NCBI GenBank assembly: GCA_020860645.1 | Contig: JAJBTX010000015.1 | Coordinates: 1 to 34,157 of the forward strand | Origin: Lachnospiraceae bacterium | GTDB lineage: Bacteria > Bacillota > Clostridia > Lachnospirales > Lachnospiraceae | DNA: 34,157 nucleotides | Direction: 5' to 3' | In this document: one piece after another, positions 32,424 through 34,046 of the stretch | How the letters are laid out: the number at the start of each line of letters is the position of its first letter | How positions within the stretch are numbered: the stretch's first letter is position 1 | Notes under the pieces: model-generated | Databases searched by the model: none | Told to the model about the DNA's origin: nothing | Seen by the model: the letters and a program-made list of their open reading frames with translations, nothing else | Position numbers and translations under genes: made by a program

Positions 32424-32510
32424 AAGAGCAGCGAGGCGTTTCTTGAGTTCCTCATTCTCTGCAAGAGCCTTCTCTTTTGCCGCTCGCTCAGTTTCTCATG
32501 CTGCCTGTTC
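32418..32510 (-). pseudogene. Degraded C-terminal coiled-coil tail (Rpn/transposase-family-like) remnant
   Basis: Minus-strand reading ...SEQAA*ETERAAKEKALAENEELKKRLAALL* has an in-frame TGA and no body upstream. Confidence 0.35.
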
Positions 32511-32652
32511 TGAGGTTTATGATACGGAAAATTTCGAAATACGTCAAATCAGTGATATTTTGATTTAATGAAACTTACTCTTGCAAGAAGTAGTGCAGGC
32601 TGGTATTTACTTTTGCAAACTGGGAGGGTTAGAGTTTTTATAGATTTTTAAG

Positions 32653-32680
32653 TTTACAAACGCTGTATTTCATGTATAAT
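32653..32680 (+). promoter_or_regulatory. Candidate sigma-A promoter for the type III antitoxin RNA: TTTACA-N16-TATAAT
   Basis: TTTACA 32653-32658, 16-nt spacer, TATAAT 32675-32680, ~33 nt upstream of the tandem repeats. Confidence 0.65.
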
Positions 32681-32712
32681 GTAGATAGAAATCATTCTGA
32701 TTTCTTCATCAC

Positions 32713-32814
32713 GAAGAGTCCTGTGACGGTTCCGACAGGACGGTAAAATAAAAGTGACCGGGTGAAGAGTCCTGTGACGGTTCCGACAGGACGGTAAAAT
32801 AAAAGTGACCGAGT
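32713..32814 (+). ncRNA. Putative type III antitoxin RNA: two 51-nt tandem repeats plus short partial third
   Basis: 32713-32763 and 32764-32814 are 50/51 identical; each has stem gtcctgt/acaggac with loop gacggttccg and an A-rich segment taaaataaaag; a third partial copy (gatgag) follows. Confidence 0.75.
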
Positions 32815-32825
32815 GATGAGAAACG

Positions 32826-32851
32826 GTGGGAGGAGTCTTTCCTCCCACTTT
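32826..32851 (+). terminator. Intrinsic-terminator-like hairpin between antitoxin repeats and toxin
   Basis: gtgggagga (32826-32834) / tcctcccac (32840-32848), 9 bp perfect stem, 5-nt loop, short T run. Confidence 0.7.
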
Positions 32852-32868
32852 CTACAGGGAAACGCACT

Positions 32869-33456
32869 ATGAAAATAAAAGACGAGTTTGATTATCAGGT
32901 ACTGAACCTGACAGATGCGTTTTTTGATGCCTATCCTGATCCCCCTTATAACGAAATTGCGAGAAAGAAAAATCGCCCATATGCCTGCCTGTTGATTCAG
33001 TCGCATTATGGTTATTTTATAGCCATTCCCTATCGAAGTCATATTAACCACAAATATGCGTACCGATTTAAAAAGAGCAGGCGTTCGCAAAGAGCCAGAT
33101 CAGGTTTGGACTACAGTAAAGTGGTCATCATCACAAATGTTGATCACATAGGGGCGGAAGACGCGATTATTGATCAGGATGAGTACAAGGAAACACGTGA
33201 CAATATAAAATACATACGAAATGATGTTGTTCGGTATATTGACAATTATGTCGATCATCTGAACGGTACTCGCATTGTCTACGATGAGATCGAATTTTCC
33301 CGTGTCTATCGGTTTTCCACATTGCCATATTTTCATAAAGAGCTGGGAATTGTGAAATTGCAGCCTCGTCTGGAAAGTGATATGATAAAACAAAATTCGA
33401 TCAAGGAGCAGTGGAACAGTTTATGCAGACAAAGCTTCTGGCATGCGCCACATTAA
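32869..33456 (+). CDS. Probable type III toxin-antitoxin endoribonuclease toxin (ToxN/AbiQ/CptN/TenpN-like)
   Basis: 195 aa; 'KNRPYACLLIQSHYGYFIAIPYRSHI' and 'RSGLDYSKVVIITNVDHI...IDQDEYKETRDNIKYI' fit the ToxN-superfamily pattern; downstream of tandem repeats + terminator. Confidence 0.72.
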   Translation: MKIKDEFDYQVLNLTDAFFDAYPDPPYNEIARKKNRPYACLLIQSHYGYFIAIPYRSHINHKYAYRFKKSRRSQRARSGLDYSKVVIITNVDHIGAEDAIIDQDEYKETRDNIKYIRNDVVRYIDNYVDHLNGTRIVYDEIEFSRVYRFSTLPYFHKELGIVKLQPRLESDMIKQNSIKEQWNSLCRQSFWHAPH

Positions 33457-34046
33457 AAAACGAACTGGAGTTTCTGTGTCAGAGGATGCACATTTCCTAT
33501 GAGACGATCTGGATTGAATCCGGACTGCATAATCGCCCGGAGCTCCTTCACAAACGCATACAGACGGAGCTGGATCAGATCACAGACTGTGACCGTCTCC
33601 TTGTCGCGTTTGGAAACTGCGGGAATGCGCTGACAGACCTTCAGAAGGGAGATTATGAGATGATTATCCCGAGGGTGGATGACTGCATTTCTCTGTTTTT
33701 TGGATCCGATGCGGTTCGAAATGCTTATGGCAGAGAGCATGCGTCTATCTATCTGACGCAGGGCTGGATGGATGGCGAGAGCAATATTGTTGCGGAATAC
33801 CAGCATATGCTGGATAAGTATGGACAGGAAACCGCGGACAGTATTATAAAGATGATGTACGGACATTATAAAGAGCTGGCGCTGCTGGACACCGGTGTGA
33901 CGGATATACAATGTCTCGTTGACGAGACCGCGAAGGTGGAAGACATCGTCCATCTCACGAGGAGAGTTGTTCCGGTCGGGCTTGGTTATCTGGAAAGATT
34001 GCTGACCGGACCGTGGAGTGAGGAGGAATTTCGTATTTTCAGGTGA
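33423..34046 (+). CDS. DUF1638 domain-containing protein
   Basis: 'MQTKLLACATLKNELEFLC...DRLLVAFGNCGNALTDLQKGDYEMIIPRVDDCISLFFGS...IYLTQGWMDGESNI' DUF1638 pattern. Confidence 0.85.
   Translation: MQTKLLACATLKNELEFLCQRMHISYETIWIESGLHNRPELLHKRIQTELDQITDCDRLLVAFGNCGNALTDLQKGDYEMIIPRVDDCISLFFGSDAVRNAYGREHASIYLTQGWMDGESNIVAEYQHMLDKYGQETADSIIKMMYGHYKELALLDTGVTDIQCLVDETAKVEDIVHLTRRVVPVGLGYLERLLTGPWSEEEFRIFR

What the first reader, a model, noticed from the sequence alone, without database searches (positions are those of the whole stretch)
32653..33456. Probable type III (RNA-protein) toxin-antitoxin locus with two 51-nt pseudoknot-capable repeats
Seen: sigma-A-like promoter (TTTACA-16-TATAAT), then two 51-nt tandem repeats (50/51 identical) plus a short partial third, then a 9-bp terminator-like hairpin, then a 195-aa ORF. 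This order (promoter, tandem-repeat RNA, attenuating terminator, toxin) is the known architecture of the toxIN/cptIN/tenpIN families. In each repeat the loop of stem gtcctgt/acaggac contains cggtt, which can pair with the downstream gaccg, giving an H-type pseudoknot like known ToxI/CptI RNAs. The A-rich taaaataaaag in each unit is a plausible self-processing site. The protein resembles the ToxN superfamily ('KNRPYACLL...YFIAIPYRSHI'), but I cannot assign it to CptN or TenpN; the 51-nt unit may mark a divergent subfamily.
Basis: partly seen in the sequence, partly recalled or inferred. Interest (0 to 1): 0.87.

Follow-up and report, generated by a model that had tools for sequence, protein, structure and literature searches.

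The report
TenpIN-type RNA-protein toxin-antitoxin locus
This is an ordinary but well-formed member of a known family of bacterial self-poisoning modules, in which a knotted repeat RNA holds an RNA-cutting toxin in check; comparing relatives shows the RNA's fold and ties the module to an RNA family that Rfam lists without a function.

Summary
[quoted passage not shown] The H-type pseudoknot is supported by covariation: in 30 distinct homologous units all 360 pair cells are standard pairs, 49 with changes on both sides (0 of 500 shuffles). The A-rich stretch is loop L2 inside the pseudoknot; the likelier processing site is a conserved GA(A/T)GA linker between units. And 51 nt is not odd: units of 45-53 nt are usual in relatives. 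The module looks mobile: a 95%-identical cassette sits in three unrelated contexts, and here its toxin end is cut off, giving a foreign 33-residue tail that may impair it. By-products: Rfam's '6A RNA' (RF02925) is the TenpI repeat of other TenpIN loci; three species of one genus keep a conserved toxin-less 6A array; one genome has toxin and antitoxin in reversed order. Function is inferred, not assayed. New member of a known kind.

The parts
32635..33352 (+). Cassette shared at 95% DNA identity with two relatives in unrelated genomic contexts (L016, L017); marks the mobile unit
   Evidence: blastn
32653..32680 (+). Promoter: -35 TTTACA (32653-32658), spacer 16, -10 TATAAT (32675-32680)
   Evidence: conserved inside the shared cassette
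32705..32712 (+). Leader TTCATCAC, complementary to the terminal linker GTGATGAG (32813-32820); possible closing helix around the array
   Evidence: 13 of 15 arrays complementary; 0 of 1000 permutations across loci reach the observed total; relatedness not controlled
32713..32763 (+). TenpI repeat unit 1: S1 32718-32724/32735-32741, S2 32727-32731/32756-32760, A-rich loop L2 32742-32755
32764..32814 (+). TenpI repeat unit 2: S1 32769-32775/32786-32792, S2 32778-32782/32807-32811, L2 32793-32806; begins with linker GAAGA 32764-32768 (candidate processing site)
32815..32820 (+).
32826..32853 (+). Rho-independent terminator-like hairpin (9 bp) and T-rich tail between antitoxin RNA and toxin gene
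   Evidence: a hairpin lies at the same place in relatives
32869..33456 (+). tenpN toxin gene, 195 aa; family core residues 14-159
   Evidence: NCBIfam NF047358 165.4 bits, E 8e-49; all 24 aligned relatives match the same model; ToxN/AbiQ/MazF-like model
33355..33456 (+). Foreign C-terminal tail (residues 163-195), absent from nearly all relatives; made by the cassette's truncated 3' end running into the next gene
33423..34046 (+). Neighbouring DUF1638 gene (likely start ATG 33423), overlapping the end of tenpN by 34 bases; not part of the TA
   Evidence: Pfam PF07796 E 1.6e-42

Best explanation
A chromosomal TenpIN-family type III toxin-antitoxin locus. One promoter makes an RNA with two 51-nt TenpI units, each folding into an H-type pseudoknot (S1 7 bp, S2 5 bp, A-rich L2). 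Most transcripts should stop at the hairpin, so antitoxin RNA is in excess; read-through gives TenpN, a ToxN/MazF-fold endoribonuclease. TenpN should cut the precursor in the GA(A/T)GA linkers and be held inactive by the pseudoknots it releases, becoming free when antitoxin supply fails (phage infection, plasmid or locus loss). Shown here: gene order, toxin family, fold, pseudoknot covariation, linker conservation, movement of the cassette. Inferred from known type III systems: cleavage, inhibition, abortive infection.
For: NCBIfam TenpIN equivalog match far over cut-off; every one of 24 relatives matches the same model. In a sample of 392 genomes of the order, 17 carry TenpN over cut-off, and inspection shows a repeat array next to the gene in all 17, upstream in 16 and downstream in one. 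Pseudoknot covariation: 49 two-sided changes in 30 window-type units, including G-C to U-A in S2, and 32 in 21 more distant units, with changes on both sides at 3 of 4 S2 pairs. AF2 model pLDDT 87 matches ToxN_Bt 4ato (TM 0.62 by target), ToxN_Pa 2xd0 (0.56), AbiQ 4glk (0.53), with MazF chains best by E-value. Known TenpIN of Photorhabdus is a working anti-phage TA (PMC5377504).
Against: No assay. The Foldseek matches have modest E-values (best 6e-3). The window's TenpN has lost its native last residues and carries a 33-residue foreign tail; a sister copy (L017) has a stop at codon 68, so this lineage's copies decay. The genomes are mostly MAGs.
Confidence: 0.93

Rival explanations
1. It is a TenpIN locus by descent but already inactive: the toxin's 3' end was replaced on insertion beside the DUF1638 gene, and the module is decaying.
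For: Nearly all relatives end within a few residues of ...YFHxELGI, while here 33 foreign residues follow and the ORF overlaps the next gene by 34 bases. Sister copy L017 has a TAA at codon 68. Truncated tenpN remnants behind single repeat units exist (L086, L039).
Against: The family core 14-159 is complete and scores 165 bits; all residues invariant in the alignment are present; promoter, both pseudoknots and terminator are intact. One relative, L003, also has a long tail.
Confidence: 0.15
2. The locus belongs to the CptIN or ToxIN family rather than TenpIN.
For: phmmer against the PDB gives only a weak hit to CptN (E 0.22); gene order is common to all three families.
Against: Only the TenpIN model matches in NCBIfam. 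A CptIN-like locus found as a control (L015) has a different toxin and a 45-nt unit that carries the published CptI_Er repeat.
Confidence: 0.03
3. The repeats are an unrelated regulatory leader (attenuator, riboswitch) that happens to precede the ORF.
For: A terminator hairpin stands before the ORF.
Against: The same pseudoknot array adjoins TenpN in unrelated contexts, on plasmids and in other phyla (L058 Fusobacterium, L059 Clostridium plasmid), and moves with the toxin as one cassette.
Confidence: 0.01

Closest known systems
TenpIN family, type III TA (founder: Photorhabdus luminescens TenpIN)
   Same: Toxin family by curated profile; repeat RNA, terminator, toxin in that order; ToxN-like fold
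   Different: Lachnospiraceae subgroup; two 51-nt units with loop CGGTTC; TenpN with a foreign C-terminal tail; no phage test here
Rfam RF02925 '6A RNA'
   Same: The same H-type pseudoknot topology, A-rich L2 and GA(A/T)GA linkers; it is the antitoxin array of other TenpN loci
   Different: The window's own units are hit by no Rfam model: a sequence subgroup that Rfam lacks
CptIN of Eubacterium rectale (PDB 4RMO)
   Same: Type III; H-type pseudoknot of 45 nt with A-rich L2; flanking processing at GA/AAG
   Different: Toxin of another family; sequence similarity only E 0.22
ToxIN / AbiQ (2XD0, 4ATO, 4GLK)
   Same: Gene order; toxin fold (TM 0.53-0.62 by target)
   Different: 34-36-nt repeats; no sequence-level match

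Membership tests
TenpIN (type III TA) | Toxin matches the TenpN family profile over cut-off | tested here: met
   165.4 bits, cut-off 90
TenpIN (type III TA) | Tandem repeat RNA directly upstream of the toxin | tested here: met
   51 nt x 2.1 at 32713-32820; arrays at TenpN relatives
TenpIN (type III TA) | Rho-independent terminator between repeats and toxin | tested here: met
   32826-32853
TenpIN (type III TA) | Toxin with ToxN (Kid/MazF-like) fold | tested here: met
   AF2 model, Foldseek matches to ToxN, AbiQ and MazF; E-values modest
TenpIN (type III TA) | Antitoxin repeat folds as a pseudoknot | tested here: met
   Covariation of S1 and S2; structure not solved
TenpIN (type III TA) | Toxin is an endoribonuclease that processes the repeats and is neutralised by them | not testable with these tools
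   needs expression and RNA assays
CptIN | Toxin of the CptN family | tested here: not met
   Only TenpIN matched in NCBIfam; phmmer to CptN E 0.22
ToxIN | Toxin of the ToxN/AbiQ sequence family, 34-36-nt repeats | tested here: not met
   No Pfam or PDB sequence match to ToxN; unit is 51 nt
Rfam 6A RNA (RF02925) | Window repeats reach the family's gathering score | tested here: not met
   No 6A hit in the window at gathering or at E up to 10

The most novel reading that the evidence does not exclude
The TenpI antitoxin is a broad pseudoknot RNA family that Rfam already holds in part, unexplained, as '6A RNA'; besides toxin-linked copies it includes free-standing, selectively conserved antitoxin arrays without any tenpN in the genome (three species of one genus), which would act in trans as standing antidotes against incoming TenpIN elements; and window-type arrays are closed by a helix between leader and terminal linker that could control processing.
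Probability: 0.35. Interest if true: 0.65.

Novelty: new member of a known kind. Interest (0 to 1): 0.4.

Why it matters
The locus itself adds one more TenpIN system. The comparison adds more: a covariation-supported pseudoknot for TenpI (no TenpN chain was found in the PDB by sequence), a candidate processing site, and a testable identity for the Rfam family 6A RNA. Solitary conserved arrays, if they neutralise toxins in trans, would be RNA antidotes to a selfish or defensive module.

Tried and rejected
Rfam scan of the locus: no family. Pfam: only sub-threshold DUF5748. PADLOC: nothing significant. Phage-borne mimics of the window-type unit: two pattern scans of 2.9 million viral contigs found none; a TenpN search there found none either. 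PDB profile search: no TenpN structure. Empty-site comparison: relatives with the upstream gene lack both the TA and the DUF1638 gene at this place, so the exact insertion point could not be shown. An apparent homology of the C-terminal tail with L018 and L022 was rejected: their ORFs stop before it. The founding papers on TenpIN (10.1093/nar/gks231) and, from memory, on 6A RNA (10.1093/nar/gkx699) are not held, so published TenpI unit lengths and any earlier 6A-TA link could not be checked.

Full report
Observation. All parts described are present at the stated places: promoter 32653-32680, two 51-nt units differing at one base, a 9-bp hairpin with a T-rich tail and a 195-aa ORF. The third partial repeat is just the six-base linker that flanks every unit.

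What the protein is. NCBIfam names it a TenpIN toxin with 165.4 bits against a cut-off of 90. All 24 relatives aligned match the same model. The AlphaFold2 model (pLDDT 87) resembles ToxN_Bt, ToxN_Pa, AbiQ and MazF chains: by target-normalised TM-score ToxN_Bt leads (0.62), by E-value MazF (6e-3). No TenpN chain turned up in the PDB by sequence profile.

Where it occurs. The window's genome is a 2.5-Mb assembly; its closest TenpN relatives lie in Lachnospiraceae MAGs. In a sample of 392 genomes of the order, 17 carry TenpN over the cut-off. Reading the flanks, I found a repeat array beside all 17: upstream in 16, downstream in one. Similar toxins occur on plasmids of Listeria, Escherichia, Salmonella, Clostridium and others, and arrays of the same design precede TenpN in Fusobacterium and on a Clostridium plasmid.

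The RNA. Thirty distinct window-type units were aligned and the named pseudoknot counted: 360 of 360 cells are standard pairs, 5 of 7 S1 pairs and 1 of 5 S2 pairs have changes on both sides, 49 such cells in all, 0 of 500 shuffles as high, and slid partners pair in at most 45% of cells. Relatedness of the sequences inflates such counts, but in L018-L020 the two units of one array carry different, matching S2 pairs (CTGTT/GACAG, CGGTT/GACCG). In 21 more distant units the same topology holds with S2 versions such as GAGC/GCTC, GGTC/GACC, GAAC/GTTC and AGGCT/AGCCT; 90.7% of cells pair, and a few rows are out of register in the alignment.

Processing site. The A-rich TAAAATAAAAG lies between S1 and S2 as loop L2, like the A-rich L2 of CptI that packs on S1 (PMC4627078). 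The motif GA(A/T)GA sits in the linker between the units in 22 of 23 arrays surveyed, and often before the first and after the last unit. CptI is processed at the corresponding junction (GA/AAG were kept at the unit's edges to allow processing). I therefore place cleavage in the linker, as inference.

Leader. In 13 of 15 window-type arrays the leader can pair over 6-10 bases with the last linker, and no permutation of linkers across loci reached the observed total in 1000. In the window this is TTCATCAC with GTGATGAG. Related sequences share both sides, so this is suggestive only.

Mobility and state. A 718-base stretch (32635-33352) is 95% identical in L016 and L017, whose flanks are unrelated to the window's and to each other, whereas a chromosomal gene shared with L017's genome is 86% identical. 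No transposase was seen next to it. In the window the copy lies among remnants of a gene that is intact in relatives, and its 3' end is cut, so tenpN reads 33 foreign codons into the start of a DUF1638 gene. L017 carries a stop at codon 68. The window's toxin may thus be impaired, though its core is complete.

Link to Rfam 6A. RF02925 hits the arrays of most non-window-type TenpN loci. In the 392-genome sample 14 genomes have 6A; 10 of them are TenpN-positive with the two adjacent. Three others (G095, G129, G157, one genus) have a two-unit array with promoter and terminator but no TenpN in the genome. About 150 columns from the end of the upstream gene through the first unit show no difference among the three species while the flanking genes differ at many sites. 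The fourteenth match (G173) is weak.

Verdict. An ordinary TenpIN locus, correctly spotted, with a correctable detail about processing. What is worth keeping is the pseudoknot evidence, the 6A link and the solitary arrays; that no one has reported the 6A link could not be verified, since the key papers are not held and the literature searches were empty on this point.

Noticed in passing
L028, L029, L031, L034-L036, L007, L030, L058, L059 (array upstream of tenpN): Rfam RF02925 '6A RNA' matches the antitoxin repeats of these TenpN loci: 6A RNA appears to be TenpI.
   Followed up: partly
L062 1501-1604, L060 and L061 (genus of G095): Solitary two-unit 6A/TenpI arrays with promoter and terminator, no tenpN in the genus; promoter region and first unit identical in three species while flanking genes diverge.
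   Followed up: partly
L008 1399-2150 (also L067): Reversed order: tenpN first, then a separate promoter and two repeat units (S2 GAAC/GTTC) downstream.
   Followed up: partly
window 32705-32712 with 32813-32820; A4: Leader complementary to the terminal linker in 13 of 15 window-type arrays.
   Followed up: partly
L086 1501-1555, L091, L093: Single TenpI units without an intact tenpN; in L086 a truncated tenpN start follows: decayed loci.
   Followed up: partly
window 32425-32547: Remnants of a minus-strand gene that stands at this place in relatives L053 and L054; probably a Rpn/PD-(D/E)XK-type gene, by recollection only.
   Followed up: no
L015 1320-1416 and 1474-1938: A CptIN-like locus whose 45-nt unit carries the published CptI of Eubacterium rectale.
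   Followed up: partly
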